A DNA stretch of 41,299 bases from a virus, in IMG/VR virus record IMGVR_UViG_3300044825_001568, positions 1-41,299 of that record; one strand, written 5' to 3'. How positions within the stretch are numbered: position 1 is the first letter of the stretch; each line of letters begins with the position of its first letter. Positions 315 to 21,458 of this stretch are shown here, piece by piece. The translations under genes and the position numbers were made by a program. The notes beneath the pieces are model-generated. The model saw only the letters and a list, made by a program, of their open reading frames with translations. It searched no databases and was not told the origin of the DNA.

Positions 315-1118
315 ATGTTTACCCGCATCCTTCGACTCGTCGCTCTTCTCCTGACGCTGGCGCTGCCGGCGTCGCTCTCGGCGCAGACCGCGCTGAACGA
401 GACCACGGCCGCCGCGGCCATGACGGCCTCGCAGACCACGATCCAGGTGGCATCCGCCACGGGCGCCGTGGCCGGCGGGGGCATCTACCTCGATCGCGAA
501 TACATGACGATCGCCTCGAGCTACACGTCGGGCACGACCATCCCGGTCATCCGGGCGGGTCGGGCCTCGACGCACGCGGCGGGCGTGCCGGTCTACATCG
601 CGCCGGCTGCGGCCTTCGTCAATCGCGACTATGACGGCTCGTGCGTGGCGGCCTCCGAAGGCTACCTGCCGCGCGTGAACGTCACCAACGGCAACATCTG
701 GGACTGCAATTCGGCGGTGGAGAAGTGGGTGAACCTGCGGGATCTGACCGTGGTCACCTGCCGCACGCTGCTCGTGGCCGACCAGATCGACCAGTCGTGC
801 TTCACGGCGAATCGGCCCTACCTCGTGTATCGCATCAACGAGGTGCATACCACGGCGGAATCGGCCGGTACGCTGACGCTGATTCCTCGTCGGCAGCAGG
901 GCACCGAAGCGCCGGCCTCCGGTGATTCGCTGGTGGCCTCGGCGATCGACATGGTGGGCGCCGGAGCCGTCGCGCAGACGGTCAAGACGCCCGCGCTGAG
1001 CGCGACCGAGGCCAACCTGATCCTCTTCACGGGGGATCGGCTCGGCCTGGACTTCACGGATGACGTGGCCGGCGAGCTGGCCGGCGTCACGGTGACGTTC
1101 TACCTCTACCCGCTGTAG
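315..1118 (+). CDS. Secreted-type structural-region protein with Sec signal peptide
   Basis: 267 residues, start ATG at 315 with AGGAG about 13 bases upstream; an in-frame upstream extension lacks this. Residues 1-22 form a classic signal peptide: Arg4, a Leu/Val/Ala core, and an S-L-S-A-Q cleavage site. The mature part is Thr/Ala/Val-rich with a beta-rich look, and has four Cys (in CVAASE, WDCNS, VTCRT, QSCF) that could form disulfides after export. It sits directly after the coat gene, where a decoration or head-completion protein would be expected. I do not recognise a family. An exported protein in a head-gene cluster is odd; it may decorate the virion late or act in the host envelope. 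Confidence 0.8.
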   Translation: MFTRILRLVALLLTLALPASLSAQTALNETTAAAAMTASQTTIQVASATGAVAGGGIYLDREYMTIASSYTSGTTIPVIRAGRASTHAAGVPVYIAPAAAFVNRDYDGSCVAASEGYLPRVNVTNGNIWDCNSAVEKWVNLRDLTVVTCRTLLVADQIDQSCFTANRPYLVYRINEVHTTAESAGTLTLIPRRQQGTEAPASGDSLVASAIDMVGAGAVAQTVKTPALSATEANLILFTGDRLGLDFTDDVAGELAGVTVTFYLYPL

Positions 1119-1127
1119 CTTCCCAAC

Positions 1128-1165
1128 GAGGGGCCGCGCCGCATCCTCGGATCGGCCGGCCCCTC
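1128..1165 (+). terminator. GC-rich hairpin between coat-proximal gene and gp4-like module
   Basis: GAGGGGCCG at 1128-1136 pairs perfectly with CGGCCCCTC at 1157-1165, and the stem can continue by about four more pairs past one mismatch. It lies between the stop at 1118 and the next start at 1187. No T-tract follows, so it may be a weak terminator, an mRNA-stabilising hairpin or a processing site. Confidence 0.5.
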
Positions 1166-1186
1166 TCACTGCGAAAGGCTGTCCCG

Positions 1187-1402
1187 ATGCTGCGGTTCCC
1201 TCGGATGCTGTTCCTGCACGGCTCAGACGAGTCGTGTTGCGTCGTCTCGAGCGAGGCCGAGCTGGCCGCGAAGGTGGCTGAAGGGTATCAGGCCCGCCCG
1301 CTGCCGGGGGAACCCGGTTACGGCGAGGCTCCAGCGCCGCTGACGCCCGCCGACGACGCCCCGCCCGTTCGCAAGAAGCCCGGCCCCAAGCCGAAGGAGT
1401 AG
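1187..1402 (+). CDS. Small virion-region protein with basic proline-rich tail
   Basis: 71 residues, ATG at 1187, with GAAAGG upstream as a weak ribosome site. The N-terminal half is a small mixed fold (FLHGSDESCCVVSSEAELAA), followed by a proline-rich linker and a C-terminal basic AT-hook-like end RKKPGPKPKE. Short proteins with this plan occur between coat and head-tail connector genes in P22-like and related podoviruses; their function is not known to me. The basic tail could contact DNA or the capsid interior. An internal ATG at 1205 is an alternative start. Confidence 0.7.
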   Translation: MLRFPRMLFLHGSDESCCVVSSEAELAAKVAEGYQARPLPGEPGYGEAPAPLTPADDAPPVRKKPGPKPKE

Positions 1403-1411
1403 CGCGCCGCT

Positions 1412-2170
1412 ATGGCGACCGTCTCGGACCTCATCACGTCGGCCCTGCGTGAACTCGGGATCGTGGGCCTGACGCAGACGCCCGGGGCTGAGCTGTCTGA
1501 CTTCTCGCTCGGGCTGCTGAATCGGATGCTCGACGCATGGAACGCGGACCGTCAGACGGTCTTTGCGGACGTGCATTCGCCGCTGTTGGCGTTTTCGGCC
1601 GGCACGAACCCCCACACAATCGGGCTCTCGGCCGATTCGCCGACGTGGACGGTGACGGGCCATCGGCCGGTGTCGATCGAGGGCATCCGCATCACCGAAG
1701 ACAACGGCGAAACGTTCCTGGCCCCGCTGGTGAAGCGAGAGGCCGCGTGGTGGCACAACGTCCGCACGCCGGGCACGCCGAACGCCTACCCGTCCGATTT
1801 CTACTACGACCCGACGTGGCCGAACGGGTCGATCTACTTCTACCCGGAACCGTCGTCGGCGGCGATCAAGGCGCAGCTGTGGTACCGCGTGCCGTTCGCT
1901 CAGGTGACGCTCAACACGGATCTTTCGGTCCCGCCCGCGTATCGCGACGCGATGACGGAGACGCTGAAGGAGCGGCTGACCGGGTTGCCGATGTTCGCGT
2001 CGATGGCCTCCGGGGACATCCGTGACGCGGCGCGCGTGGCGCGCGGGAAGGCGTTCGGGAACAACGCCCCGGTGCAGCGGATGACTACGGCGGATCTCGG
2101 CATGGGCGGCGTGGGTGGCGCGGAGTATGACCATCAGCTCGGCCCGTTCTCGCTGATGAGGGGCTTCTGA
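1412..2170 (+). CDS. P22 gp4-like tail accessory factor (head-tail adaptor)
   Basis: 252 residues, ATG at 1412. The start MATVSDLITSALRELGIVG and the following LxxLNRMLDAWNAD segment match the helical adaptor fold of P22 gp4, which binds beneath the portal and lets gp10 assemble. The family is often 150-250 residues; this one is at the long end, with a beta-rich insertion (about residues 60-150) containing WPNGSIYFYPEPS, a pattern common in the longer homologues. Its stop overlaps the next start (TGATG), and it precedes the gp10-like gene as gene 4 precedes gene 10 in P22. Confidence 0.85.
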   Translation: MATVSDLITSALRELGIVGLTQTPGAELSDFSLGLLNRMLDAWNADRQTVFADVHSPLLAFSAGTNPHTIGLSADSPTWTVTGHRPVSIEGIRITEDNGETFLAPLVKREAAWWHNVRTPGTPNAYPSDFYYDPTWPNGSIYFYPEPSSAAIKAQLWYRVPFAQVTLNTDLSVPPAYRDAMTETLKERLTGLPMFASMASGDIRDAARVARGKAFGNNAPVQRMTTADLGMGGVGGAEYDHQLGPFSLMRGF

Positions 2171-3612
2171 TGCCGGCGATCGCGGGCTTCGTGGGGGGCG
2201 CCTACAGCGCGCAGAACCCCGTGAGCGCCAACGAAACGGCGGTGAACTGGTTCGCCTCCGCGGTGGAGACGCCCAACGGGGCGACGCCTGCCGAGATGCT
2301 GCCGACTCCGGGCCTGTCGACGGTGGCTACGGCCTCGGTTGGGGGCTGCCGGGCGGCATGGGCTGGGGACGGCCGGTGCTTCTTCGTCTTCGGCAATACG
2401 CTGTTCGAGCTGTCGGCTTCGCTGGCGCTCACCAGCCGGGCCACGCTGGCGCTCGACGCGAATCCGGCCACCATCTCGAGCAACGGGGACGCCGGGAATC
2501 AGCTGCTCATCACCAGCGGCGGCAATGCCTACGTCTACGACCTGACGACGAACGTGACGTCGCTGGCGCTCACGGGCGACTGCCTGCAGGGCGGCGTGGT
2601 CGACGGCTTCGGCGTGGTGTTCGGCGGCGCGCGGTTCCGGATCTCGGATCTGTTCGACCTGGCGAGCTGGGATCCGACGCAGTTTGCGCTGCGCTCGATT
2701 CAGCCGGACTTGTGGCAGGCCGCGCTGATCGACCCCTACGGCTACATCACGTTGCTCGGCTCGAAAACGTCGGAATCGTGGTCGAACGTGGGCGGCGCGT
2801 CGTTCCCCTTCGCCCCGGATCGCTCCGGGTTGATGGAGGAAGGCATCGCGGCGCCGTTCTCGGTGAAACAGGCCGGGAAACAGAAGGTGTGGCTGGCCAC
2901 GAACGGGAATGGTGGCTACCAGGTGATGGCCGCGCAAGGCTTCACCCCGCGTCGGATCTCGACGCACGGGCTCGAGGTGGCGATCAAGGGTTACGCTGGC
3001 ATCGCGACGGCGTTCGCGGACACCTACGAAGACGAGGGGCGCGCGTTCTACCTGCTCACGTTCCCGCAGGCCGGCGCGACGTGGTGTTACGACTTCTCAA
3101 CGGGGCTTTGGCATCGTCGGGGCGCCTACATCGGCGGCGCGTTCACCTACTGGCGGCCGGCGTTCCATTGCTTCGCGTTCGGGCGGCACCTGGCCGGGGA
3201 TCTCGACTCGGGCGCGGTGCTCGAGCTGCGGGACGACGTGCATACGGACGTGGGCGGCATCCCAATCGTGCGGGAACGGCAGTTTTTCGCCGGGAACACG
3301 TCGAATCAGCGCGCGTTCTTCGACCATCTCGAGATCATCGGGCAGTCGGGCGTGGGGCTGGCGTCGGGCGCCGCGGAAGACGTCGATCCGCACGTCATGT
3401 TGGCGATTTCGGACGACTACGGGCAGACGTTCCACACGGAGCGCACGACGGCGATCGGCCCGGTGGGCCGGCGTGAGGTGCGCTGGGCGTGGTGGGGGCT
3501 CGGCTCTGGCGCGGGACGGTATTACCGCCTGCGGGCGAGTGCGGCGGTCCCGGTGCGGCTGACGGCCGCGACGCAGCGTGTCCGGATGGGTGCGCCGCTG
3601 GAGGCTGCGTAA
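2170..3612 (+). CDS. P22 gp10-like packaged DNA stabilisation protein (tail hub)
   Basis: 480 residues, close to the 472 of P22 gp10. The start MPAIAGFVGGAYSAQNPVSA followed by NETAVNWFA and PTPGLSTVA is typical of the family, which builds a beta-propeller-like ring under the gp4 adaptor and keeps packaged DNA in the head. Central strands such as WYLGS-type repeats (YGYITLLGSKTSESW) and the segment FPFAPDRSGLMEEGIAAPFS support this. It overlaps its neighbours by one base on both sides, so it is translated as part of the head-tail operon. Confidence 0.88.
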   Translation: MPAIAGFVGGAYSAQNPVSANETAVNWFASAVETPNGATPAEMLPTPGLSTVATASVGGCRAAWAGDGRCFFVFGNTLFELSASLALTSRATLALDANPATISSNGDAGNQLLITSGGNAYVYDLTTNVTSLALTGDCLQGGVVDGFGVVFGGARFRISDLFDLASWDPTQFALRSIQPDLWQAALIDPYGYITLLGSKTSESWSNVGGASFPFAPDRSGLMEEGIAAPFSVKQAGKQKVWLATNGNGGYQVMAAQGFTPRRISTHGLEVAIKGYAGIATAFADTYEDEGRAFYLLTFPQAGATWCYDFSTGLWHRRGAYIGGAFTYWRPAFHCFAFGRHLAGDLDSGAVLELRDDVHTDVGGIPIVRERQFFAGNTSNQRAFFDHLEIIGQSGVGLASGAAEDVDPHVMLAISDDYGQTFHTERTTAIGPVGRREVRWAWWGLGSGAGRYYRLRASAAVPVRLTAATQRVRMGAPLEAA

Positions 3613-3728
3613 TGGCGCTCCCGCTGCCGCCCGTGCGCGAACGACTCATCGACGATCGCGGGTTCATCTCGCCCCGCTGGCAGCGGTGGCTGGTTGAGTT
3701 CATCACGGCACTGGAGGCCGCGTTGTAA
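3612..3728 (+). CDS. Small protein between gp10-like and ejection genes
   Basis: 38 residues, ATG at 3612 overlapping the gp10-like stop by one base and ending in a TAATG overlap with the next gene. The sequence holds LIDDRGFISPRWQRWLVEFI, a pattern seen in many short podovirus proteins at this position. It could be a small tail-assembly or virion protein; I do not know a function. The tight coupling on both sides and strong third-position GC make it a real gene despite its size. Confidence 0.75.
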   Translation: MALPLPPVRERLIDDRGFISPRWQRWLVEFITALEAAL

Positions 3729-5098
3729 TGGCGTTCGACTACCAGTATGACGCGGCGGAAATGCAGCGGCTCGCCGACGAAGAACGGCGGATGCAGGAAG
3801 AGCAGCAGCGGCAGGCTGAGGAGGCCGCGCGCGCGCAGCAGCAGGCGCAGCGGCCGCCGCCGGGGACGAATCTCGGCGCGCTGATGCGTGAGCCGGCGCC
3901 GGCCAATCCCTACGCCTCGCCGCCGCCGGGGATGTCGTGGGAGGAGATCGCGCGGGAACGCGGGACGGTGCGCCCGCAGGACGCGGCGCCGGCTCCGGCC
4001 CCGCAGGAAGCGGCCCCGGCTCAGGCTCCGGCGTCCTACGCGCACGATCCGAATCGTGACTACTCGCGCAATCCGCTCACGGGCGCCGAGTTCGAGGCGT
4101 TCAAGGCCGCGGGCGGCAAGGGCTACCTCGAAGGCGCGACGAGCTACTACGGCGGCGGCGCGCTGCCCACGGGCACGGCGACGCCGGGGCGTGAGGGTTC
4201 GTCGATCGACGTGGACGAGTTCAACAAGGGCGTACGCGGCTCGGAGCTGTATCAGCAGTTCGTCGGGAGTCGCGGCCTGCGTAACGGGAAGTGGTCGGAC
4301 TCCGACCGTGAGGCGTGGCGGAACACGTTGCGCCAAGCGGGTGTGCAGGTGCCGGACGGCATGAAGATCGACGACGCCGGCAATCTGAATCAGGTCAACA
4401 AGCTGGGCAAGCGGCTGATTATCGGCGGTGCGATCGTCGGCGGAACGCTGCTCACGGCGGGCGCGCTCGGCGCGTTCGGTGGGGCGGCGGCGGCCGGCGG
4501 GGCGGCCAGTGGCGCCGCGGGCGCTGGTGCGGCGGCTGGCGCTGCCGGTGCCGGCGCTGCGGCTGCGGGCACGGGTGCGGCGGTTGCGGGTGGCGCGGCG
4601 GCAGCCGCAGGAGCGGGGGCGGGTATGGGCATCATGCCGTCAGTGATCACGGGGCTGGCCGGGCTCGGCTCGACCTACATGGGCGCGCGGGCGCAGTCGC
4701 AGGCCGGGAAACAGGCCGCGGCGGCCTCGGAGCGCGCGGCGGCGGCGAGCGAACGCACGCTGATTGCGGATCGCGAGTTCGAGCGCGAACAGCGGGCGCA
4801 GGAACGCGCCGACGCTGAACGGCGCTGGGCCGCGGAGCAGGAGATGGCCCGCAAGATGTGGGAAGCGCAGGAAGACGAACGTCTCTACGAGCGGAAGATC
4901 CGCGAAGAAGACCGCGCGGCGATGCTGGCGCGCAACAACAACGGCCCGGCCTACAGCGGCCCCTCGGGGCCGGACCCGCGACAGCTTCGGCGGGAACAGG
5001 CCCAGCGCAATCTCGCCGCGCTGCTGGCGCAGCACACGCCCGGACAGGCGAACCCCTACACGCCCGCGACGGCTGCCGGCCCGGTGGGACGAGGTTAG
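3728..5098 (+). CDS. Ejection (internal virion) protein with Gly/Ala-rich membrane-like segment
   Basis: 456 residues. Residues 1-60 are a charged Gln/Glu-rich helix, 60-120 a proline-rich linker, and a globular part follows. About residues 235-305 form a long Gly/Ala-rich hydrophobic stretch (GGAIVGGTLLTAGALGAFGG) that could insert into membrane. A highly charged coiled coil (about 325-395) follows. This plan fits the ejected proteins of P22 (gp7, gp20, gp16), which leave the virion with DNA and form a conduit through the cell envelope. Its first six residues, MAFDYQ, are shared with the next gene. The exact counterpart among gp7/gp20 is uncertain. Confidence 0.72.
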   Translation: MAFDYQYDAAEMQRLADEERRMQEEQQRQAEEAARAQQQAQRPPPGTNLGALMREPAPANPYASPPPGMSWEEIARERGTVRPQDAAPAPAPQEAAPAQAPASYAHDPNRDYSRNPLTGAEFEAFKAAGGKGYLEGATSYYGGGALPTGTATPGREGSSIDVDEFNKGVRGSELYQQFVGSRGLRNGKWSDSDREAWRNTLRQAGVQVPDGMKIDDAGNLNQVNKLGKRLIIGGAIVGGTLLTAGALGAFGGAAAAGGAASGAAGAGAAAGAAGAGAAAAGTGAAVAGGAAAAAGAGAGMGIMPSVITGLAGLGSTYMGARAQSQAGKQAAAASERAAAASERTLIADREFEREQRAQERADAERRWAAEQEMARKMWEAQEDERLYERKIREEDRAAMLARNNNGPAYSGPSGPDPRQLRREQAQRNLAALLAQHTPGQANPYTPATAAGPVGRG

Positions 5099-5101
5099 AC
5101 G

Positions 5102-5797
5102 ATGGCTTTCGACTACCAGACGCAGGATCCGAACGCCGGCTACACCCCGGAGCAGTTCGGGCAGTGGTATCAGTCGCAGTTCGGCCAGGCGGCGGATCCG
5201 AACGTGATGCAGCAGATCGGCGCGCAGGTCGGCCCCGCGGCTGGCCCGAACGGCAACTACAGTGCGGCGCAGTGGCAGCAGGGGCAGCAGATCGCGCAGC
5301 AGCCCGGCATGGTGTCGCACCCGGCGCCGTTCTTCTCGGAGTTCCAGGCGCCGAAGTTCGAGGCCGGCCCCGAGTTCCAGGCTCCGCAGCCGTTCCAGGC
5401 GCCGACGATGGCGCAGGCGCAGGCGGATCCGGGCTACCAGTTCGCGCTCAATCAGGGCATGGACGCGCTGCAGAACAGCCAGGCGGCGCGCGGGATGGCG
5501 CGCACGGGCGGCGCGCTCAAGGATCTGATGGCCTATGGGCAGCAGGCCGCGGCGCAGCAGTACGACAAGGTGTACGACCGCGCGGCGCAGCAGCACAACC
5601 AGGCGTATGCGCAGGGTCGCGACGCGTGGAGTATGAATCAGCAGCAGCGGGAAGGCGCGTTCGATCGCAACTACCGCGGCGCGTCGGACGCCTTCAATTC
5701 GAAGTTCCGCGGCCAGGAACTGAGCTTCCAGGATCTCTTCAACCGCTGGAACGTGAAGACGAACATCACCGCCCAGGAAGCGCTCGCGCGCGACTAA
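5102..5797 (+). CDS. Ejection-module virion protein (gp7/gp20-like)
   Basis: 231 residues, Gln/Ala-rich. It starts MAFDYQ like its upstream neighbour. Residues about 105-155 (DPGYQFALNQGMDALQNSQA and ARGMARTGGALKDLMAYGQQ) are a segment I know from many phage proteins placed among DNA-transfer or ejection genes. N-terminal residues 10-75 carry repeated YTPEQFGQWYQ / YSAAQWQQGQQ units. It lies between two larger ejection candidates, spaced by three bases from each, so a role inside the virion and in DNA delivery is likely. Confidence 0.7.
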   Translation: MAFDYQTQDPNAGYTPEQFGQWYQSQFGQAADPNVMQQIGAQVGPAAGPNGNYSAAQWQQGQQIAQQPGMVSHPAPFFSEFQAPKFEAGPEFQAPQPFQAPTMAQAQADPGYQFALNQGMDALQNSQAARGMARTGGALKDLMAYGQQAAAQQYDKVYDRAAQQHNQAYAQGRDAWSMNQQQREGAFDRNYRGASDAFNSKFRGQELSFQDLFNRWNVKTNITAQEALARD

Positions 5798-5800
5798 CCC

Positions 5801-7348
5801 ATGCCGGCCATCAAAGTCGATTACGTGCCGTTGCCCTACGTCGGCCCCCGCTACGAGAACAGCGGGCACGGCCGCACGCTGGCCGATCTGATGCTGCAGC
5901 GCGGCAATCAGGAGGCGGCGCTCCACCTGCAGCGCGGCGACAACGCGGCGCGCGCGTGGCAGGGCGCCGGGCAGTCCATCATGGGCGCCGTGAACGACTG
6001 GCAGCAGCGGGTGGAATACAACCGGCAGGCGGCGATCGACAACGCGCGGGAAGCGCGGCGCGCGGAGGCCGAAGGGCTGCAGATCAAGGCGAGCAAGGGC
6101 GCGCTCGAGGAACAGGAGCGGCGGCGGAAGGGCGCCGAGACGGCGCGCGCGGTGATGCCGCTGGCGCGGCGGGAGAATGGCGTCTACGGCTACGACCGTG
6201 ACGTGATTGCGCGCGAGATGGAAGCGGCCGGCCACGGCGACATGCTGCCGGATGTCTTCGCGAAGCTCGACGAACAGGAAGCCGGGTATCTCAAGGTCCA
6301 GGAAGCGCGCACCGATGCGGTGGCGGCCGACGCGTGGCGCGTGCTGCAGGGCGGCGCGGCCGATGCGGAGACGGTCGGCGAGCTGATGCGGGCGTGGAAA
6401 GAGAACAACCTGGTGCCGGCGTCGGATCTCAAGCTGTTCGAGAAGGCCATGAAGCAGCACGGCCCCGAGCGCGCGCTGATGGCGGCGGTGCAGTCGTCGC
6501 CCCGCATGGCGCAGATGCTGCAGCAGATGGAAGCGGCGAACGCGCCGAAGCTGCACAACGTGCCGGAGGGCGCGACGGTCATCGACGAGCGGAACCCGCA
6601 GGCCGGGCCGCTGTTCACGGCGCCTCGCGCGGAGAAGGCGCCCACGGACATCGAGGCGGCCATCCTGCAGGCGCGGGCGAGCGGCGACAAGGCGGCCGTC
6701 GATGAACTGGTGGGCATCAAGGAGCGGATGGCGCGCGCGGGTCGTGCGCCGGCTCCGGCCCCGGCGGCGGAACCCCTGCAGGCGGTCATCGGCGACGACG
6801 GCCGTCCGGTGCTGGTGCCGCGCTCGGAGGCAGTCGGCAAGCAGCCGGCGAGCACGCGCGAGACGGGCCGGCAGGTCACGAGCGGCGACGCGGGCGACAT
6901 TGCCGAGTTCAATACGGCGCTCGATGACGTGGCCACGCTCAAGGCGGCGCTGGCCGGCAACCAGGCCACGGGCGCGGCGGCGAACATCGGCGCGAACGTG
7001 CCGAATTGGGCCACTGAACTGACCGGCTGGGGCACGGACGCGAAGCAGAAGCAGGCCGTGATTGACCGCGTGAAGCAGGTCATCGGCAAGGCGCTCGAAG
7101 GCGGCGTGCTCCGGAAGGAAGACGAGGCGAAATACGCCAAGATTCTGCCGACCATCGGTGATCCGACCGCTGTCGTCGAGGCGAAGCTGGCCGGGCTCGA
7201 AGCGGCGCTGCAGCGTCGGCAGGAACGCAAGATCGACGCGCTCGACTCTGCCGGCTACGACGTGTCGAAGTTCCGGCGGCCGGCGGCGGACGGCTGGCAG
7301 GAGATCGACGGCATCCGGATCCGCGTGAAGCCGGGCGGGGGCGACTGA
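5801..7348 (+). CDS. Ejection-module virion protein, mostly helical
   Basis: 515 residues, ATG at 5801, three bases after the preceding stop, ending in a TGATG overlap with the next gene. The N-terminal 130 residues are predicted by eye to be long Arg/Glu/Ala-rich helices (coiled coil), followed by Ala-rich helical segments and a C-terminal domain (about 370-515) with DEAKYAKILPTIGDPTAVVE. No enzymatic motif is visible. Position and composition suggest a P22 gp20-like internal protein. I cannot name the family. Confidence 0.7.
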   Translation: MPAIKVDYVPLPYVGPRYENSGHGRTLADLMLQRGNQEAALHLQRGDNAARAWQGAGQSIMGAVNDWQQRVEYNRQAAIDNAREARRAEAEGLQIKASKGALEEQERRRKGAETARAVMPLARRENGVYGYDRDVIAREMEAAGHGDMLPDVFAKLDEQEAGYLKVQEARTDAVAADAWRVLQGGAADAETVGELMRAWKENNLVPASDLKLFEKAMKQHGPERALMAAVQSSPRMAQMLQQMEAANAPKLHNVPEGATVIDERNPQAGPLFTAPRAEKAPTDIEAAILQARASGDKAAVDELVGIKERMARAGRAPAPAPAAEPLQAVIGDDGRPVLVPRSEAVGKQPASTRETGRQVTSGDAGDIAEFNTALDDVATLKAALAGNQATGAAANIGANVPNWATELTGWGTDAKQKQAVIDRVKQVIGKALEGGVLRKEDEAKYAKILPTIGDPTAVVEAKLAGLEAALQRRQERKIDALDSAGYDVSKFRRPAADGWQEIDGIRIRVKPGGGD

Positions 7349-9741: not shown

Positions 9742-9880
9742 CCAGGCAGAACAGGGTGTAGAGCACGAGGCCGAACATGATCGCGGCCAGCGCGGCTAAA
9801 AAGACTGCGTAGGCGCGAAACCAGAGGGTGACGATGAACGCCGGAACCTCCACAAACCAGAAGCGCCACATCGGCGCCAT
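9692..9880 (-). CDS. Antisense small two-helix membrane protein, SieA-like in position
   Basis: 62 residues on the minus strand. Two hydrophobic segments, about 10-30 (VEVPAFIVTLWFRAYAVF) and 30-52 (AALAAIMFGLVLYTLFCLAI), suggest a small inner-membrane protein. The middle of the gene (9742-9833) has no plus-strand gene, and there the minus frame shows the genome's third-position GC bias. AGGAGG lies 12 bases before the ATG, on the minus strand. In P22 the superinfection-exclusion gene sieA sits between gene 16 and the tailspike gene and is read against the late genes; this gene has the same place and orientation. SieA itself is longer (about 160 residues), so only an analogous role is proposed. 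Confidence 0.6.
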   Translation of the reverse strand: MAPMWRFWFVEVPAFIVTLWFRAYAVFLAALAAIMFGLVLYTLFCLAIGWPLPAFVLSPDPP

Positions 9881-11222
9881 TGTAGTCGGAATCCTCCTGT
9901 TCGTGGGCGCGTCTGCGTGGGCGCAGACCGGCCAGGTGATGCCGCCGCCCGTCTTCTACGCCTCCGACGCGAACGGTGATCCGTGCGCCGGATGCAAGCT
10001 CTTTTCGTATCTGGCCGGCACGACCACCAAACAGAGCACCTACACCACGTCGGCGCTCTCAGTGGCGAATGCGAATCCGGTGGTTCTCGACTCAGCCGGA
10101 CGCGCCACCGTTTTCCTCGATTCCACCAAGTCCTACAAGTTCGTGCTGGCGCCGGCTTCCGACACGGACCCGCCGGCCGCGGCGATCTACACGGTCGATA
10201 ACGTCGTCGGGCCGTTCTCGGGCGTCGTGTCGATCACGGCGGCGAACACCCGCGGCCTGCAAATCAGCCGCACGTCGGCCGATGCCGGGCTGAGCATTCA
10301 ATCCAGCGGCGGCAGCGGAAAAACCTACGGGATCGTCTCGAACACGTCGGGCGGGCTGCTGATTCGGGACGACGCGGACGGCACGCCCTCGATGCAGTGG
10401 CTCGGCGACAACATTACGGCCACGCTCACGGGCACGTTCACCGTTTCGGGCGGGCTGTTCGCGGCCGATGGGTTCGGCACGCACACGTTTTCGGCTGGCG
10501 GGACGGGCACGCAGCGCTTGCAGGTCCGGAACACCACGAGCGGCACCGGCAACCAGGCATCGCTCGACATTGGGAACAACTCGACGGCGACGCTTGGGCG
10601 GTTCGTGGCGCTCTCCAGCGCGTTCACGCCCTCCGGCTACTCGCTGGCGTCGGGCGTGGTGCTCGAAGGCAACGGCGCGGGCGGGCTGAGTCTGGCGGCC
10701 TCCGATGCTGCGGGCGATGTGCGGCTCTACGCGGGCGGCTCTGGGACGGCGCGGCTAACGGTGGACGATACCGGGCTGACGACGGTCACGAACCTGCAGG
10801 CGACGATCCAGAAGAGCGGCACGGCGCAGCCGGGGTTTCTCGCGTACAACTCGGCGGCCGATACGGTGGCGACCGGGGCGACGGTGGACTTCGACACAGA
10901 GGTGTACGACACCGCCAACAACTTCGCGTCTGACCTGTTCACGGCGCCGCAAACCGGGATCTATGAGCTGTGCGCAAGCGTCACGTACTCCGACAACGCG
11001 TCATCACAGTTCACGGTCAGCATCAATCCGACCGGCGTGCTCTATCAGATCTACCACGCGCTCGCGGAGACGGCCGGCGGCGGCGGCGGGTGTGTGTTCG
11101 TGTCGATGAGTACTGGCGATTCGGCTGGTGTCATCGTCAACACGACGGACCCGGCGGCTACGATTGAGGGCGTGTCGGGCTCCTACCGGCAGACGTGGTT
11201 TTCGGGGCGGTTGGTGCCCTGA
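9834..11222 (+). CDS. Tail fibre with signal-peptide-like N-terminus, virion-binding module and C1q-like tip
   Basis: 462 residues, ATG at 9834 with GAGGG five bases upstream; a GTG at 9828 is the alternative. Residues about 10-31 (RHIGAIVVGILLFVGASAWA then Q) look like a Sec signal peptide. Residues about 38-115 match the common tail-fibre N-terminal module, with GDPCAGCKLFSYLAGTTTKQ, then ANPVVLDSAGRA and YKFVLAP. The middle is repetitive beta, probably a fibre shaft. The last 135 residues (LFTAPQTGIYELCASVTYSD) resemble a C1q/TNF-like jelly-roll trimer tip for receptor binding. A signal peptide before a virion-binding module is unexpected. Confidence 0.8.
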   Translation: MNAGTSTNQKRHIGAIVVGILLFVGASAWAQTGQVMPPPVFYASDANGDPCAGCKLFSYLAGTTTKQSTYTTSALSVANANPVVLDSAGRATVFLDSTKSYKFVLAPASDTDPPAAAIYTVDNVVGPFSGVVSITAANTRGLQISRTSADAGLSIQSSGGSGKTYGIVSNTSGGLLIRDDADGTPSMQWLGDNITATLTGTFTVSGGLFAADGFGTHTFSAGGTGTQRLQVRNTTSGTGNQASLDIGNNSTATLGRFVALSSAFTPSGYSLASGVVLEGNGAGGLSLAASDAAGDVRLYAGGSGTARLTVDDTGLTTVTNLQATIQKSGTAQPGFLAYNSAADTVATGATVDFDTEVYDTANNFASDLFTAPQTGIYELCASVTYSDNASSQFTVSINPTGVLYQIYHALAETAGGGGGCVFVSMSTGDSAGVIVNTTDPAATIEGVSGSYRQTWFSGRLVP

Positions 11223-11233
11223 TCTGCACGAAA

Positions 11234-11276
11234 TCTTCGACAGGTCGAAGAAAATGCGTCACACTCTCGCTAGAAT
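11234..11276 (+). promoter_or_regulatory. 18-bp perfect palindrome and TAGAAT hexamer before lysis genes
   Basis: TCTTCGAC (11234-11241) and GTCGAAGA (11244-11251) are perfect inverted repeats separated by two bases; as RNA this is a seven-pair stem with a CAGG loop. TAGAAT at 11271-11276 resembles a -10 element and lies 12 bases before the ATG at 11289. No good -35 is visible. It may be an operator, a terminator-like hairpin for the fibre gene, or both. Confidence 0.45.
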
Positions 11277-11288
11277 GAGGCCGACACG

Positions 11289-11546
11289 ATGACCGTGGAA
11301 CGCGGCGTCGAGATCGCGGGTGCCTCTGTCGTCGCTGCGGCCACGGCCGCGGGTGCCATGACGGAGGCGGACATGGGCGGATGGCTCGTGCCGATGGTGT
11401 CGGCGGGATTGGCGGCGCTCGTGGGCTACTTCACGGCGCGCATCACCACGGAGCGTGAGATGGGCACGATGGTGGAGCGCGAAGCGAATCACTTCGACGA
11501 GACGATCCGTCGTCTCGAGCGCATCGAACGGAAGCTGGACGGATGA
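11289..11546 (+). CDS. Small membrane protein, holin candidate
   Basis: 85 residues. A weakly hydrophobic Ala-rich segment (residues 7-24) and a clear transmembrane segment (about 31-51, WLVPMVSAGLAALVGYFTAR) are followed by a charged coiled-coil tail (HFDETIRRLERIERKLDG). It overlaps the endolysin gene by four bases (ATGA), the usual holin-endolysin arrangement. One or two membrane helices plus a charged C-terminus fit a class II-like holin; a spanin-like or anchoring role is possible. Confidence 0.62.
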   Translation: MTVERGVEIAGASVVAAATAAGAMTEADMGGWLVPMVSAGLAALVGYFTARITTEREMGTMVEREANHFDETIRRLERIERKLDG

Positions 11547-11950
11547 CCGGCCCCTCGGCGCATCTGTCGTGGTCGGAGCTGGCCTGTCGGGATCGCATCC
11601 GCACGCCGTACCCGCTCGACTGGCGCGAGACGCGGGCGGTGGAGCTGGCCGAGGCGTTCGAGGCCCTGCGGGCCGCCGTGGGGCTGCCGCTGGTGGTCCT
11701 GAGTGCCTACCTGACGCGCGCGTATAACCGGGCGGTCGGAGGGGCGCCCAACTCGCAACATCTGCAGGGCCGGGCGCTCGACCTGGCGCCGCCTGACGGG
11801 TGGTCGCCGATCGCGCTGCTGGCGGTGACGCAGGACATCCCCGCGATTCGCGGGCTGGGGCTTTACGACACGTTCGTGCACATCGACGTGCGGCCGGCGC
11901 CGCGGGTCGTCTGGGATCTCTCGTCAACGGGCCGCAAGGCCGAAGGGTAG
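11543..11950 (+). CDS. Endolysin, peptidase M15 family (zinc peptidoglycan peptidase)
   Basis: 135 residues. The zinc motif of the M15A/VanY-type D-Ala-D-Ala-cleaving peptidases is visible: SAYLTRAYNRAVGGAPNSQH ends in His73, followed by Asp80 in QGRALDLA, and the third ligand His113 lies in FVHIDVR. Length matches single-domain phage M15 lysins. It would cut peptide crosslinks in host peptidoglycan at lysis. It has no signal peptide, so release depends on a holin, probably one of the small membrane proteins at 11289 or 13718. Confidence 0.88.
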   Translation: MTGPSAHLSWSELACRDRIRTPYPLDWRETRAVELAEAFEALRAAVGLPLVVLSAYLTRAYNRAVGGAPNSQHLQGRALDLAPPDGWSPIALLAVTQDIPAIRGLGLYDTFVHIDVRPAPRVVWDLSSTGRKAEG

Positions 11951-11960
11951 GTGGGTGGTG

Positions 11961-12785
11961 ATGGTCGCGCGTCTTCTCGTGCTGTTCGTGCTGGTGGCGT
12001 CGTCGGCGTTCGCGCAGGTGGCTAAGCCGGTCGGGGTGTTCGACGGCGGGCACAATCCGCCGTCGTGGGCGGCGTTCGCCACGATTTCGGATCTCGATCC
12101 GCCGCACGTCTGGGCCGAGGCCATCGCGCTCAGCCGCTCGCGGGGCACGCTCTGGTGGCTGAAACTCGGCTACCACGAGAACCCCACGACGCCCATTGGG
12201 GCGCACGCGGCGCGCGTCCGCAACCGGCTGGACGAATACGGCCTGCTGCCCTACGTGGCAGGCATGTCGGTGGGGGAGGAGTGGTACGGCTACTGGTCGG
12301 CGGGCGACCTGACGCGCTACGGGCTCCCTCCCGGCTACCCGAACGGGCATCGCATCATCCGCGACTGGCTCGGCTACCAGCACGCCGAAGCGAAGCGCCA
12401 CATCCCCGTGCCGGTCATCTGGATCTCGCCCGTGGTCACGGGCTGGGATGGCCCGCTGCCGATTCCGCTCAACACGGATGCCGTGGCGCTCGACCCCTAC
12501 ATCTTCCCCGGCGGGACGTTCCAGAGCGATGTCGAACCGTGGCTGAGGCTCGCGGAGGAAGTCACGCCGTTGCCGCTCGTGCTCATCGCGCAGTGGTTCG
12601 AGGCCCCCGGCTTCGAGGCTCCGCGCGCGGCGGACGTGTCGCGGTATCTCGCGTGGCTCTCCCGGCCCCGGTGGATCGCGCTGGCGGGCTTCACCTGGCA
12701 GGATCGGCCGACGCTGGCGATGCGTGGTCTTTCTTCGCTGCCGGCGCTTCGTTTGGCCGTAGAATCTTCGCTCAGGGGGCAGTGA
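11961..12785 (+). CDS. Secreted TIM-barrel-like protein, possible glycoside hydrolase
   Basis: 274 residues from ATG at 11961; GTG codons at 11955 and 11958 are alternative starts. Residues 1-19 (MVARLLVLFVLVASSAFA, then Q) are a signal peptide. The mature protein shows the alternation of strands and helices of a beta/alpha barrel: GTLWWLKLGYH, LLPYVAGMSVGEEWYGYW, VPVIWISPVV, DAVALDPYIF, PLVLIAQWFE, IALAGFTWQD. The Glu pair in GEEW and Glu in QWFE are placed like catalytic acids of barrel glycosidases, but I cannot assign a family. It follows the endolysin, so it could degrade cell-wall or capsule glycan from the periplasmic side. Confidence 0.65.
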   Translation: MVARLLVLFVLVASSAFAQVAKPVGVFDGGHNPPSWAAFATISDLDPPHVWAEAIALSRSRGTLWWLKLGYHENPTTPIGAHAARVRNRLDEYGLLPYVAGMSVGEEWYGYWSAGDLTRYGLPPGYPNGHRIIRDWLGYQHAEAKRHIPVPVIWISPVVTGWDGPLPIPLNTDAVALDPYIFPGGTFQSDVEPWLRLAEEVTPLPLVLIAQWFEAPGFEAPRAADVSRYLAWLSRPRWIALAGFTWQDRPTLAMRGLSSLPALRLAVESSLRGQ

Positions 12786-13714: not shown

Positions 13715-13717
13715 CAG

Positions 13718-13882
13718 ATGACCGGCAAACACTACGCCCTGCTCGCGGGCTGCCTCACGGGGATCGGCGGCATGTGCGCGGCGCTCACCGACTGGCATCA
13801 GGCGCTGAATCCGGCCTTCATCGGCGGCGCGCTGACGGTGTTCGGCACGCAGGTGGGCGCGATCTTCTCGGAAAAGCCGTGA
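13718..13882 (+). CDS. 54-residue holin candidate
   Basis: 54 residues. Two hydrophobic segments, about 6-23 (ALLAGCLTGIGGMCAALT) and 33-50 (FIGGALTVFGTQVGAIFS), joined by a short turn with Asp/His, and a Lys at the C-terminus, fit a small two-helix holin. It lies three bases after the preceding gene and overlaps the next by four bases (GTGA). A division of work with the 11289 product, holin and antiholin, is possible. Confidence 0.6.
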   Translation: MTGKHYALLAGCLTGIGGMCAALTDWHQALNPAFIGGALTVFGTQVGAIFSEKP

Positions 13883-13995
13883 AGATCCCCTGGAAGAAGC
13901 TGATCGGCAAGGCGCTCCGCTGGCTCGGCCGCGAAGTCGCCGACGAAGTGATGAAAGAAGCGGCGAAGCGCGCCGAAGGCGCGAAGAAGCCGTGA
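13879..13995 (+). CDS. 38-residue basic amphipathic peptide
   Basis: 38 residues starting at GTG 13879 inside the previous stop (GTGA). The sequence begins KIPWKKLIGKALRWLGREVA and is a single Lys/Arg-rich amphipathic helix. Its coupling to the holin candidate suggests a membrane-active or holin-modulating peptide, but that is inference. It is too short for a family call. Confidence 0.5.
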   Translation: MKIPWKKLIGKALRWLGREVADEVMKEAAKRAEGAKKP

Positions 13996-14091
13996 GCGTT
14001 TCGCAGCGCGGGCCTACGCGTGCCGGCTGGGAGCCGAGCCGCGTGTGATGCTGCCTCGCCCAAGGGTGGACCGGGCGGCTCGGAAAGATCG

Positions 14092-14106
14092 GGGCGCGTG
14101 GCGCCC
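14092..14106 (+). other. Hairpin in 184-bp gap before fibre cluster
   Basis: GGGCGC (14092-14097) pairs with GCGCCC (14101-14106) around GTG. The gap 13996-14179 contains no convincing small gene; an in-frame extension of the next gene starts at 14045 but has no ribosome site. No T-tract follows the hairpin. Confidence 0.35.
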
Positions 14107-14179
14107 GCGCTGTGGAGGGTTCGGGATGCGACGTGACGATCTGAAGGCGTGGGCCGCGGTAGCGCTGGAGGCACGAAAG

Positions 14180-15691
14180 ATGAGCATTACGAGATGGCGG
14201 ATTGCGGCGGCGCTGTGGTGCGCGGCGCTGCTGGCAGTAGGCGCGCAGGCGCAGGGACCATCCCGCGGCTCGCTCGGCGCGGCCAGTGCGGTGCATCAGC
14301 TCGACGTGCAGGGGATGGCGACGGCCTCCATCACGGTCAGCGGCACGTATTCGGGCACGGTGTCGTTCGAAGTCGTGCCGCCGCTCGGCGCGGCAGCCGT
14401 GACGGTGGACTGTGCCACGCCCGCGGCGCCGGGCACGGCGATCAACTCGACGACGGGCACGGGCACCTGGGTGTGTCCGGTGGCCGGCATGTCGCTCCTG
14501 CAGGCGCGGATGTCGTCCTACACGAGCGGCGCGGCCGATGTCGTCATGCTGGCGTCGGCCTCGGCGGGGCAGACGGTCGCGGCGGCGGGCGGCGGCGGGT
14601 CATTCGATGGCGTGCTGCTCGACGCGGCCGGCGGCGATGCGCTGACCGACACGGTCAACAACGCGCTGCGCGTGAACATCATCGCGGGCGCGGGCTCCGG
14701 CGGAACGGCGATGACCGACGATGCCGCGTTCACCCCGGGCACTACGAGCGTGACGCCGGCCGGCGCCGTGTTCGATGACGTGACGCCGGACAGCGTGAAC
14801 GAAGGCGATGGCGGCGCGGTGCGCATGAGCGCCAACCGGAACCTCTACAGCACGATCCGTGACGCTTCGGGGAGTGAGCGCGGCGCGAACGTGACGGCTG
14901 GCAATGCTCTGGTGGTGGACGGCTCGGCCGTCACGCAGCCGGTCAGCGCGACGAATCTGGACGTGCAGATCGGTGGGTCGGATACGGTCACGGTCACGGG
15001 CTCGCTGTCCAACGACGGCTCGGCGGCGAGCACGAACCGCATCGGCACGCTGCCTGCTGTGGTGCAGAATAGCGCCCCGACGCTCACGGACGGGCGCAAC
15101 GCGGCGCTGAGTCTGACCACGGGCGGCGCGGCGCGCGTCATCGTCACGAACGCGGCGGGCGCGGCGCAGACGCTGGCGAGCGATGTCGCGGAGGATGGCG
15201 CGCATTCGGACGGCGAGACGGGGCCGCTGGTGCTCACGCGGCGTATTGACACGGCGTCGTCCTCGGCGGGCACGTCGGGCGACCGCGCCACGTTCAACAC
15301 GGATGCGCTCGGGCGGCTCTGGACGCGGCCGGGCAACCCCTGCCAGGATCACGCGCGGGTTACGTCCGTGGCCATCGACACGAGTACGAGCGGGAACGTG
15401 CAGCTCGTGGCGCTCAATGGCTCCGACCTGATCTACATCTGCGGGTATTCGGTTGTCGTTGGCTCGACGGCGACGGCCGTGCAGCTGATCTACGGCACCG
15501 GCACCGCGTGCGCCACGGGCGAGACGGACCTTACTGGGCCGTGGCCCTTTGCGGCCAACGGCGGCATCACGCAGGCCAACGCGGGATCGCCGCAGTTCGT
15601 GGTTCCGGCGGGCAACGCGCTCTGCGTGGAACTGAGCGCGGCCAACCCCATCACCGGACACGTCACTTACGTCCGCACGGCGGCTCCATAA
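14180..15691 (+). CDS. Secreted beta-rich fibre/adhesin-like protein
   Basis: 503 residues, ATG at 14180 with GGAGG eight bases upstream, which decides this start over longer options. Residues 1-25 form a signal peptide (RWRIAAALWCAALLAVGAQA, then Q). The rest is Thr/Ser/Ala/Gly-rich with repeated short strands (TASITVSGTYSGTVSFEV; DTVTVTGSLSNDG), the composition of phage fibre or bacterial surface proteins. A glycine run (AAAGGGGSF, about residue 135) separates an N-terminal domain from the long repetitive part, and the last 120 residues form a compact Cys-containing domain. Probably a tail-fibre or accessory adhesin. Confidence 0.65.
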   Translation: MSITRWRIAAALWCAALLAVGAQAQGPSRGSLGAASAVHQLDVQGMATASITVSGTYSGTVSFEVVPPLGAAAVTVDCATPAAPGTAINSTTGTGTWVCPVAGMSLLQARMSSYTSGAADVVMLASASAGQTVAAAGGGGSFDGVLLDAAGGDALTDTVNNALRVNIIAGAGSGGTAMTDDAAFTPGTTSVTPAGAVFDDVTPDSVNEGDGGAVRMSANRNLYSTIRDASGSERGANVTAGNALVVDGSAVTQPVSATNLDVQIGGSDTVTVTGSLSNDGSAASTNRIGTLPAVVQNSAPTLTDGRNAALSLTTGGAARVIVTNAAGAAQTLASDVAEDGAHSDGETGPLVLTRRIDTASSSAGTSGDRATFNTDALGRLWTRPGNPCQDHARVTSVAIDTSTSGNVQLVALNGSDLIYICGYSVVVGSTATAVQLIYGTGTACATGETDLTGPWPFAANGGITQANAGSPQFVVPAGNALCVELSAANPITGHVTYVRTAAP

Positions 15692-15713
15692 CGGCGCACT
15701 GGTTGGGGGTGCT

Positions 15714-16481
15714 ATGACTCGAACCCGCATTCTGTTTCTTGCGGCGCTGGTCGCCGTGGCACTCGTGCTGCCGCCGTGGGTCGCCCGGCCTCGGGCGGCG
15801 TCGGCGTTCGTGCAGGCGTTTTCCAATCATCTCGTGGTGTCGGGCTCGCCCACGGTGGCGCTCACCGGGGTCACAGCCGGGAATACGCTGGTGTTCTGCG
15901 TCTACATGCAGAGCAACAACCGCACGCTCGACAGCATGAGCGGTGGGTCGAACAGCTACAGCGAAACCGTGGCGCGCACGATCAACACGGGCAGCAACCA
16001 CGCCATGACGATGTGGCGGGCGTTCAACGTGAGCGGCGGCGACTACACGGTCACGCTGACCATGAGCGCGTCGTCCACCTACTCGATTGGCGTGGTGGAG
16101 TTGTCCGGCGTCACCACGACCGATCCGCTCGACTCGGCCCCGGCGGGCGAAGTCGCAGAGCCCGGCCAGACGTTGGATGTTGGACCCACGGCGACGCTCG
16201 CCCAGGCCAACGAAATCCTCGTCGGATGTGGCGGCGGGTCGGTCTCGTCTCGCCCGTTCAACGCGATGAGCGGATGGACGAACCGGGTCGATCTGACGAA
16301 CCCGTATCTGGCGATGTGGACGAAGACGGTCAGCGCCACGACGGCGCAGTCATTGCCGCTTGATACGGCTCCCAATAATCAGTTCATCATCGGCAATCTT
16401 GCCAGCTTCACGGATGCCGGCGGCGGCGGGGGCGGCGGCAGCGCGCCTCGTCTGGGCCTGCTCGGCGTGGGGGGCGCGTGA
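15714..16481 (+). CDS. Secreted beta-sandwich adhesin-like protein
   Basis: 255 residues. Residues 1-31 form a signal peptide with two Arg and a long hydrophobic core (ILFLAALVAVALVLPPWVAR) ending A-A-S-A. The mature part looks like a lectin-like beta sandwich (NTLVFCVYMQSNNRTLDSMS; YSIGVVELSGVTTTDPLDSA), a fold found in surface and fibre proteins. It ends with seven glycines and SAPRLGLLGVGGA, a possible flexible C-terminal tag; the next gene ends similarly (SVPRLRLRGNE). Stop and next start overlap (GTGA). Confidence 0.65.
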   Translation: MTRTRILFLAALVAVALVLPPWVARPRAASAFVQAFSNHLVVSGSPTVALTGVTAGNTLVFCVYMQSNNRTLDSMSGGSNSYSETVARTINTGSNHAMTMWRAFNVSGGDYTVTLTMSASSTYSIGVVELSGVTTTDPLDSAPAGEVAEPGQTLDVGPTATLAQANEILVGCGGGSVSSRPFNAMSGWTNRVDLTNPYLAMWTKTVSATTAQSLPLDTAPNNQFIIGNLASFTDAGGGGGGGSAPRLGLLGVGGA

Positions 16482-18094
16482 TTCGTCGCGTGATCTGGGC
16501 GCTGCTGCTGGTGGCGCTCGCCGCGCCCGCGAGCGCGGCGGAATACTACGTCAACTGTTCAACGGGCAACGACAGCAACAGCGGGGCTATCGGCTCGCCC
16601 TGGCTGACCGTACAGAAGGCCGCGAATACGATGGTGGCGGGGGATACGACCTACGTGCGGGCCGGGACCTGCACGGAGGATGTGATCGGCTTCGCCAACT
16701 CGGGCACGGCGGGCAACCCCATCACCCTGCGTGGCTACCCCGGTGAGACCGCCATCATCGACGCGGGCCACACCACGTCGTTTCCGCCTGATGGCATCGG
16801 GCAGGAGCCCGTGTTCGACATCGACGGCCCGGACTTTATCACGCTGTCGTATCTCACGATCCGGCGCGGGCGCACGTCGAACATCTACATCAGCGACGAC
16901 GTGCAATCGACGGACATCACCATCGATCACTGCATCCTTGAAGACTTCACCACTGGGGATAACGCGGCGTCGATCTACGTCAACAACACGTCCGACAACA
17001 TCGTTATCACGAATAACCTGATCGACGGCTACACGCCTGACCTTCGGGCGAACGTGGCCAGCGGCATCATCCTGTTCTCGGTGCAGGACGTCACCATTGA
17101 GCACAACGAGATTCGCAACGTCATTCAGGGCATCAGTCAGAAATACTCAGCGGCGACGAACTACACGCAGCTGGTGCGCTACAACTACCTGCACACCATC
17201 ACCGATTTCGGGATGCTCTGGTCGGGGCATGACGGCGTCATCTCCCACAACCTACTGGAAGAAACATCGACGGCTGGCGCCTACGGGGCCATCCTGATCT
17301 TCCAGGAGGCGGGCTCGTGCTCGGCGCTCCCGAGCGACGATAATCAGATTCTCCACAACACGATCTACGGCGGCGCGGCGGGGATCGTCCTGAACCAGAG
17401 CACGCTCTGTGACGGCGCGGTCAATACGCTGGTGCGCGACAACATCGTCGCCGAATACGACGGCACCGAGTATCGAGGGCTGGCGATCAGTCCGTATCGA
17501 ACCGATGATCTCGGCTCGACCGTCACCTACAATCTCGTCTATTCGAGCATCGTGACGGGCACGGATGCGTTCGTGGCGAACACCTACTACGAGCTGGCCT
17601 CCCTGCCGGGCACGGTCACGCACTCGAACAACATCAACAGCGCGCCGACTTTCGTGAGTGTGGCAGGGCACGACTTTACGCTGTCTGCCGGGTCGCAGGG
17701 CGAGAACGCCGCGAGCGACGGCACAGACATGGGCGCGGACATGACGTGCGTCGGCATCGACGGCTCGTGCGGCGGGGCGACAGTGCCAGATGCCCCGACG
17801 ATTGGCGCGGTGACGGCGGGTGACGGGCAGTGCTCGGTCGCGTTCACGCCGCCAGGGAACGACGGCGGGGCGACGATCACCGGCTACACGGCCACGTCCA
17901 CGCCCGGCAGCATCACTGGCACCGGGGCGAGCAGCCCGATCACGGTCACGGGCTTGTCGAACGGTACCGGCTACACGTTCACGGTCTACGCGACGAACAG
18001 CGAAGGCAACAGCAGCAACAGCAGCGCCTCGGCGACCTGCACGCCTGTGGCGTCGGCGTCGGTGCCGCGGCTTCGCTTGCGAGGGAATGAGTAG
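16478..18094 (+). CDS. Secreted right-handed beta-helix protein with Fn3 domain, candidate depolymerase/tailspike
   Basis: 538 residues, GTG at 16478 within the previous stop. Residues 1-20 are a signal peptide (VIWALLLVALAAPASA). Residues 21-75 (NDSNSGAIGSPWLTVQKAAN, GDTTYVRAGTC) are the DUF1565-type start of parallel beta-helix proteins, which continue through repeated turns such as DITIDHCILEDF, NIVITNNLIDGY and DVTIEHNEIRNV to about residue 400. A fibronectin type III domain (about 435-525, APTIGAVTAGDGQCSVAFTP) follows. Such helices act on polysaccharides in tailspikes and in bacterial lyases. With its export signal it may be a released capsule depolymerase; substrate unknown. Confidence 0.72.
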   Translation: MIRRVIWALLLVALAAPASAAEYYVNCSTGNDSNSGAIGSPWLTVQKAANTMVAGDTTYVRAGTCTEDVIGFANSGTAGNPITLRGYPGETAIIDAGHTTSFPPDGIGQEPVFDIDGPDFITLSYLTIRRGRTSNIYISDDVQSTDITIDHCILEDFTTGDNAASIYVNNTSDNIVITNNLIDGYTPDLRANVASGIILFSVQDVTIEHNEIRNVIQGISQKYSAATNYTQLVRYNYLHTITDFGMLWSGHDGVISHNLLEETSTAGAYGAILIFQEAGSCSALPSDDNQILHNTIYGGAAGIVLNQSTLCDGAVNTLVRDNIVAEYDGTEYRGLAISPYRTDDLGSTVTYNLVYSSIVTGTDAFVANTYYELASLPGTVTHSNNINSAPTFVSVAGHDFTLSAGSQGENAASDGTDMGADMTCVGIDGSCGGATVPDAPTIGAVTAGDGQCSVAFTPPGNDGGATITGYTATSTPGSITGTGASSPITVTGLSNGTGYTFTVYATNSEGNSSNSSASATCTPVASASVPRLRLRGNE

Positions 18095-21363: not shown

Positions 21364-21458
21364 ATCGGTGGAACCTGCTCAGTTCGCTGGCGGTCATCGC
21401 GGGCGGTGAACTGCTCATCATCGCGGCCATCGTGGGCCGCTTCAAGGGGTGGTGGTAG
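21360..21458 (+). CDS. 32-residue single-helix membrane peptide
   Basis: 32 residues, start ATG at 21360 in the previous stop (ATGA). Residues 6-26 (LLSSLAVIAGGELLIIAAIV) form one transmembrane helix followed by GRFKGWW. It ends directly before the next ATG. Early small membrane peptides in phages often act in exclusion or host inhibition, but no specific role can be assigned. Confidence 0.6.
   Translation: MNRWNLLSSLAVIAGGELLIIAAIVGRFKGWW

What the first reader, a model, noticed from the sequence alone, without database searches (positions are those of the whole stretch)
315..18094. Six genes of the structural and fibre region encode Sec signal peptides
Products starting at 315, 9834, 11961, 14180, 15714 and 16478 each begin with a Sec-type signal peptide; four have an A-x-A/Q junction with Gln at +1. 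Virion proteins normally stay in the cytoplasm for assembly. One of them (9834) even carries a standard tail-fibre attachment module behind the signal. Possible meanings: proteins displayed or released from infected cells (depolymerases, adhesins, envelope modifiers), or virion parts assembled from the periplasmic side at lysis. This looks like an undescribed secreted arsenal within a podovirus late operon.
Basis: partly seen in the sequence, partly recalled or inferred. Interest (0 to 1): 0.85.

Follow-up and report, generated by a model that had tools for sequence, protein, structure and literature searches.

The report
Phage tail fibres exported through Sec
A phage and its uncultured relatives put cleavable secretion signals on proteins that look like parts of the virus particle, including the receptor-binding tail fibre, and these proteins carry the paired cysteines typical of secreted proteins, which suggests that part of the particle is made outside the cytoplasm and added around the time the cell bursts.

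Summary
The window is a complete circular P22-like podovirus genome. All six products begin with Sec/SPI-type signal peptides; 15714 has the least certain cleavage site. The pattern is clade-wide: in 24 related phage records, 27 of 38 high-scoring signal-peptide genes have Gln at +1, against none in 15 more distant records. The 9834 product carries a tailspike head-binding domain (PDB 7eeq). Its relatives occur with or without a signal peptide at the same junction, with at least 4 switches on the portal tree, and exported forms keep the head-binding positions. Cysteines follow the signal: 15 of 16 exported relatives of 315 have the same Cys pair versus 1 of 10 without a signal, and 25 of 26 cysteine-containing Gln+1 precursors have an even number. 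So export into an oxidising compartment is very likely. Best reading: receptor-binding and decoration-type proteins are exported, disulfide-bonded and joined to virions at lysis. A secreted-only role is not excluded. Comparable genes occur in cultured phages (Xanthomonas PBR31, Burkholderia BcepC6B, Synechococcus Ssp-JY42/Yong-M4-211). The host is unknown; neither SignalP nor proteomics could be run.

The parts
315..1118 (+). Post-capsid-gene protein, 267 aa; signal peptide 315-383 (MFTRILRLVALLLTLALPASLSA|QT), mature 384-1115 with Cys110 and Cys131 conserved in exported relatives
   Evidence: signal; relatives, Cys pair; beta-rich N-terminal domain, confident for about the first 120 mature residues
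9834..11222 (+). Tail fibre, 462 aa: signal peptide 9834-9923 (...GASAWA|QTGQ), head-binding domain about 9924-10260, weak C1q-like C-terminal head about 10851-11216
   Evidence: signal; PDB 7eeq E 2.5e-15; homologues start at the module; C1q, sub-threshold E 0.02
9924..10260 (+). Tailspike head-binding module; CAGC pair (Cys51, Cys54) where SP-less homologues mostly have L-A-G-G
11961..12785 (+). Exported protein, 274 aa, signal 11961-12014 (MVARLLVLFVLVASSAFA|QV); no relatives found; alternating strands and helices in a low-confidence model
   Evidence: no homologue, model not usable
14180..15691 (+). Exported fibre-like protein, 503 aa, signal 14180-14251 (...VGAQA|QG), 6 mature Cys; relative in G039 (81% identical over q155-499) with its own, different signal; C-terminal domain shared with Synechococcus phages
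15714..16481 (+). Exported or membrane-anchored protein, 255 aa, signal about 15714-15806 (probable ASA|FV); relative in G039 73% identical with its own hydrophobic N-terminus
   Evidence: (weak minor-tail match)
16478..18094 (+). Exported NosD-like (beta-helix family) plus fibronectin III protein, 538 aa, signal 16478-16537 (MIRRVIWALLLVALAAPASA|AE); 84% identical relative in G039, whose signal is 50% identical
11543..11950 (+). Endolysin, peptidase M15 family, between exported genes; no signal
   Evidence: PF08291 E 6e-19
1412..2170 (+). Head-tail adaptor (SU10-adaptor family), no signal
2170..3612 (+). Head closure / packaged DNA stabilization protein (P22 gp10-like), no signal
   Evidence: (phrog_578 E 2e-76)
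3728..9741 (+). Probable ejection-protein genes, no signal
   Evidence: 5102: phrog_598 DNA ejection, E 6e-4; the rest by position
35051..36535 (+). Terminase large subunit
36944..39100 (+). Portal, used for the tree
40195..41299 (+). Major capsid protein (P22-like), continues across the circular junction to base 270

Best explanation
The six genes encode precursors that the host Sec translocase exports and signal peptidase I cuts, four of them in front of a Gln. In the oxidising periplasm most of the mature proteins form disulfides. At least the 9834 product, and probably the 315 product, are virion parts: the tail fibre and a decoration- or fibre-like protein. They wait in the periplasm while heads and tails assemble in the cytoplasm, and join the particles when lysis mixes the two compartments, through the head-binding domain that in relatives attaches tailspikes made in the cytoplasm. 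Shown by sequence: the signals, the junction, the retained head-binding positions, the repeated gain or loss, and the cysteine pairing. Inferred: actual export, joining at lysis, and presence in virions.
For: Signals stand above all other starts. The module of 9834 alone matches the solved tailspike head-binding domain 7eeq. SP-less homologues begin at the module, so cleavage gives nearly the same N-terminus (QGTVMP vs MSNFGTVMP). SP+ and SP- modules keep 16.5 and 16.4 of 19 conserved positions. The window and nearly all records with a module show one such gene. SP+ and SP- fibres are mixed within one 100%-supported clade of 24 portal rows, with at least 4 forced changes. Cys in the module: 6 of 9 SP+ vs 1 of 25 SP-, p 0.0004. 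Relatives of 315: the Cys pair in 15 of 16 SP+ vs 1 of 10 SP-, p 3e-5. 25 of 26 Cys-containing Gln+1 precursors have even mature Cys counts (p 8e-7), against 11 even and 9 odd for SP- fibres. Another exported clade protein, in G001, has a weak endosialidase-chaperone (tailspike-type) C-terminus, E 8e-4, just below the cut-off.
Against: No proteomics, no SignalP run and no known host. I know of no tailed phage shown to add a fibre from the periplasm. SP calls for five of the ten SP+ modules rest on reading the sequence, since the scorer gave them low values. Among the ten SP+ module proteins themselves Cys parity is only 7 even to 3 odd. Related genes are not independent samples, and tree-aware pair tests lack power. 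15714 may be an anchored protein, and 11961 has no virion-like feature.
Confidence: 0.55

Rival explanations
1. The proteins are exported and oxidised but never join the virion: free or surface-bound adhesins and enzymes that coat the infected cell or debris, block receptors against re-adsorption, or loosen the matrix before release.
For: The signals and paired cysteines show export as well as they do under the best explanation. 11961, 15714 and 16478 show no head-binding module. Some relatives carry both SP+ and SP- paralogues of the 315 type.
Against: Exported modules keep the head-binding positions as well as SP-less tailspikes do, and 9834 is the only such gene found in this complete genome, so the virion would then lack its normal fibre.
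Confidence: 0.27
2. Only part of each pool is exported: the same gene serves as virion fibre from the cytoplasm and as secreted blocker from the periplasm.
For: Repeated gain and loss of the signal on one fibre type suggests the virion role does not depend on it.
Against: Disulfide-type Cys pairs that track the signal point to a mainly oxidised mature form. Internal starts were not examined in detail.
Confidence: 0.1
3. The N-terminal segments are uncleaved membrane anchors that hold fibres at the inner membrane, or are inert.
For: 15714 has no clear cleavage site.
Against: Small residues at -3 and -1 with Gln at +1; A-Q-T invariant in seven relatives of 315; hydrophobic sequence diverging while its character is kept (signal 50% vs start of mature part 81% identical for 16478); Cys pairing.
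Confidence: 0.05
4. Chance or start-codon artefact in a 69% GC genome.
For: High GC gives many long spurious frames; 14180 and 15714 lay within the noise of the first scorer.
Against: None of 1349 other starts reaches 10. The pattern recurs at the same places in relatives, 38 sense vs 7 antisense hits in the clade; 14180 and 15714 have relatives with signals of their own.
Confidence: 0.02

Closest known systems
Tailspike head-binding domain of Pseudanabaena phage Pam1 (PDB 7eeq) and the matching N-termini of tailspikes in Xanthomonas phage PBR31, Vibrio phages and DSL-LC05
   Same: Same domain family and conserved positions; in most of them the same place in the genome, after the ejection genes
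   Different: There the protein starts at the domain and has no signal; here a cleavable signal precedes it and Cys pairs appear
Burkholderia phage BcepC6B gp19 and Xanthomonas phage PBR31 orf35 (annotated tail fibre / putative structural protein)
   Same: Signal-peptide-like N-terminus and a mature Cys pair in fibre-type genes next to the tailspike; C-terminus shared with ordinary autographivirus tail fibres
   Different: Not detectably homologous to the six; the PBR31 paper mentions a signal peptide only for esterase gp40 (PMC10975493)
Lambda Lom/Bor-type morons and other phage-encoded exported proteins (from own knowledge)
   Same: Phage genes with signal peptides, some near tail-fibre genes
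   Different: Those are host-envelope proteins expressed in lysogens, without a virion attachment domain
Bacteroidetes Q-rule (PMC5837995, PMC10653852)
   Same: Gln at +1 after SPI cleavage
   Different: Reported as specific to Bacteroidetes; the host here is unknown and no Bacteroidetes link was found

Membership tests
Sec/SPI signal peptide | Positive n-region, hydrophobic core, small residues at -3 and -1 | tested here: met
   Six of six above all other starts with softened weights, four of six with the first scorer; site unclear for 15714
Sec/SPI signal peptide | Cleavage and export in cells | not testable with these tools
   Needs N-terminomics or a PhoA fusion
P22/Pam1-type tailspike (9834) | N-terminal head-binding domain | tested here: met
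   phmmer to 7eeq E 2.5e-15; 16 of 19 conserved positions
P22/Pam1-type tailspike (9834) | Receptor-binding or depolymerase body | tested here: inconclusive
   Weak C1q match only, E 0.02, below cut-off
P22/Pam1-type tailspike (9834) | Present in the virion | not testable with these tools
   No virion available
P22-like podovirus (whole genome) | P22-type portal, scaffold, capsid protein and head closure protein | tested here: met
Disulfide-bonded exported protein | Even number of mature cysteines, pairs linked to export | tested here: met
   25 of 26 even in clade Gln+1 precursors; Cys pairs track the signal; the window's own 16478 (Ala at +1) has 9
Q-rule organism as host | Host exported proteins mostly start with Gln | tested here: inconclusive
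   Host unknown; small samples of three acidobacterial MAGs gave few signals, 4 Gln of 9

The most novel reading that the evidence does not exclude
A clade of tailed phages builds its virion in two compartments: capsid and tail in the cytoplasm, while receptor-binding fibres and decoration-type proteins are exported by the host Sec system, disulfide-bonded in the periplasm, and attached at lysis. The secretion signal is gained and lost repeatedly as an evolutionary switch.
Probability: 0.5. Interest if true: 0.87.

Novelty: new variant of a known kind. Interest (0 to 1): 0.74.

Why it matters
Virion proteins of tailed phages are assumed to be made and assembled in the cytoplasm. If fibres are exported, fibre folding, disulfide chemistry, lysis timing and fibre attachment become linked, and exported fibres could also act on the host surface before release. 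The trait can be tested in cultured phages, and a signal peptide in front of a tail-fibre gene would become a useful annotation mark instead of a curiosity.

Tried and rejected
Single-protein scans of viral contigs with the head closure protein, portal and 11961 found nothing; a portal alignment and then a relative's portal opened the clade. Host search: terminase relatives lie on contigs of MAGs named Ca. Eisenbacteria (71% identity, with a 68% relative of 315), Bryobacteraceae and other Acidobacteria, but the contigs are short, binning is uncertain, and scans of 396 genomes of the phylum of the Solibacteraceae MAG and 47 of the phylum of the Eisenbacteria MAG found no other close portal. The structure of 11961 from one sequence is poor (pLDDT 42) and its fold matches are not used. 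The 315 model is good only for about the first 120 mature residues; no PDB match below E 0.001, and the best viral match is an unnamed phage protein. A signal-like extension before the G023 capsid gene was judged a chance upstream reading, and G032's hit a wrong start. Paper searches found no report of Sec signals on tail fibres; the library lacks most subscription papers.

Full report
WHAT THE WINDOW IS. The record is a virus contig whose first 127 bases repeat at its end, so it is a complete circular assembly. It encodes a P22-like podovirus: terminase, portal, scaffold, P22-type capsid protein across the junction, adaptor, head closure protein, ejection protein, M15 endolysin. GC is about 69%.

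THE SIGNALS. SignalP could not be run. I built a scorer from 38 E. coli signal peptides written from memory, tested by leave-one-out, and used every start codon of the window as the null. At annotated starts no other gene scores above 2.2. Four of the six (315, 9834, 11961, 16478) stand far above the best unrelated start (9.8); 14180 and 15714 lie at 7.9 and 8.8. With softened cleavage weights, chosen after that result, all six score 10.9-20.5 and the best of 1349 other starts 9.9. Four have Gln at +1. Gene 15714 has a clear n- and h-region but an uncertain cleavage site.

THE KEY PROTEIN. The 9834 product, without its signal, matches the solved tailspike head-binding domain of phage Pam1 (7eeq, E 2.5e-15). 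In PBR31, Vibrio phages, Pam1, DSL-LC05 and others the protein starts directly at this domain; the window has about 30 extra residues, the signal, and nothing more, before it.

RELATIVES. A portal alignment found many IMG/VR relatives; 39 records were read in whole or large part (the more distant ones often only over about 20 kb). In 24 records of the clade (capsid protein above 37% identical, window included) there are 38 non-redundant sense-strand genes scoring 10 or more, 27 with Gln at +1, against 7 antisense hits, 2 with Gln. In the 15 more distant records there are few hits and none with Gln. Signals recur at two places: right after the capsid gene (315 type) and on fibre genes.

SWITCHING. 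The head-binding module is SP+ in the window, G001, G018, G020, G021, G023, G027, G036, G038 and an acidobacterial MAG contig, and SP- in all others. Five of these ten calls rest on inspection because the scorer is strict on the cleavage site. On a portal tree all SP+ fibres fall in one fully supported clade of 24 rows, mixed with SP- ones; at least 4 changes are forced by well-supported branches, 5 on the best tree. G039, whose 14180, 15714 and 16478 relatives are 81, 73 and 84% identical to the window's over the matched parts, has its own diverged signals on all three but an SP-less fibre. After cleavage SP+ modules begin like SP- ones (QGTVMP vs MSNFGTVMP). Conserved module positions are kept equally: 16.5 of 19 in SP+, 16.4 in SP-.

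CYSTEINES. If export is real, the proteins should look oxidised, and they do. In the module, Cys occurs in 6 of 9 SP+ and 1 of 25 SP- rows of the tree set (p 0.0004), as a C-x-G-C pair in the window, G036 and G027. In the 315 family the same two Cys occur in 15 of 16 SP+ and 1 of 10 SP- members (p 3e-5). Of 26 Gln+1 precursors with any mature Cys, 25 have an even number (p 8e-7; 18 of 19 outside the 315 family), while SP- fibres split 11 even to 9 odd. Cys makes up 1.7% of these precursors, 1.2% of the window's six mature proteins and 0.3% of its signal-less structural proteins. Limits: relatives are not independent; tree-aware pairs agree in direction but are too few; the window's own 16478 has nine Cys; SP+ module proteins taken alone split 7 to 3.

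BEYOND THE CLADE. Cultured phages have comparable genes. PBR31 orf35 and its homologue BcepC6B gp19, called tail fibre, have signal-like N-termini and a Cys pair, while their C-terminus is shared with ordinary tail fibres of autographiviruses that have no signal. Synechococcus phage Ssp-JY42 carries a relative of the 14180 C-terminus with a signal of its own, next to a second signal-bearing gene, and Yong-M4-211 has genes of the same lengths and order, the first matching 14180 equally. A Manatee Spring podovirus has an 847-residue relative with an A|QT signal. The PBR31 paper notes a signal only for another protein (PMC10975493).

INTERPRETATION. Export with signal cleavage and disulfide formation is very likely (about 0.9). 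That the exported fibre belongs to the virion follows from the retained head-binding domain, its single copy and the SP-/SP+ alternation, but is not shown. Joining at lysis is the simplest way to reconcile cytoplasmic capsids with exported fibres; P22 tailspikes are known (own knowledge) to attach to finished heads in vitro. Rivals are a secreted-only role and a dual role.

NOVELTY. Tail fibres are a known kind; Sec-exported, disulfide-bonded ones with repeated gain or loss of the signal are, as far as the held library shows, undescribed. The host remains unknown.

Noticed in passing
L002:24674-25483 (PBR31) and L383:3450-4523 (BcepC6B gp19): Signal-peptide-bearing tail-fibre-type genes in cultured phages, whose C-terminal domain is shared with ordinary autographivirus tail fibres lacking a signal.
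   Followed up: partly
L014:8863-11650 (Synechococcus phage Ssp-JY42): Two adjacent fibre-region genes with signal peptides and 4 and 10 Cys, in a phage group with a laboratory host (Synechococcus PCC 7002 for Yong-M4-211).
   Followed up: partly
records G022, G024, G028, G029, G031-G033, G037, G039 (head closure gene): The head closure match is split into two pieces about 1-2 kb apart in several clade members, often with a TGA inside the first piece, suggesting an inserted gene or domain.
   Followed up: no
L185:15261-16010 and the following gene (same phage type as G038): An SP+ and an SP- paralogue of the 315 type lie side by side after the capsid gene.
   Followed up: partly
window 28011-29270: DNA cytosine methyltransferase-like gene in the non-structural region, identified by reading, apart from a weak match in one relative.
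   Followed up: no
window 21356-21600: Two short overlapping ORFs with membrane segments that may be holin or spanin genes, far from the endolysin.
   Followed up: no
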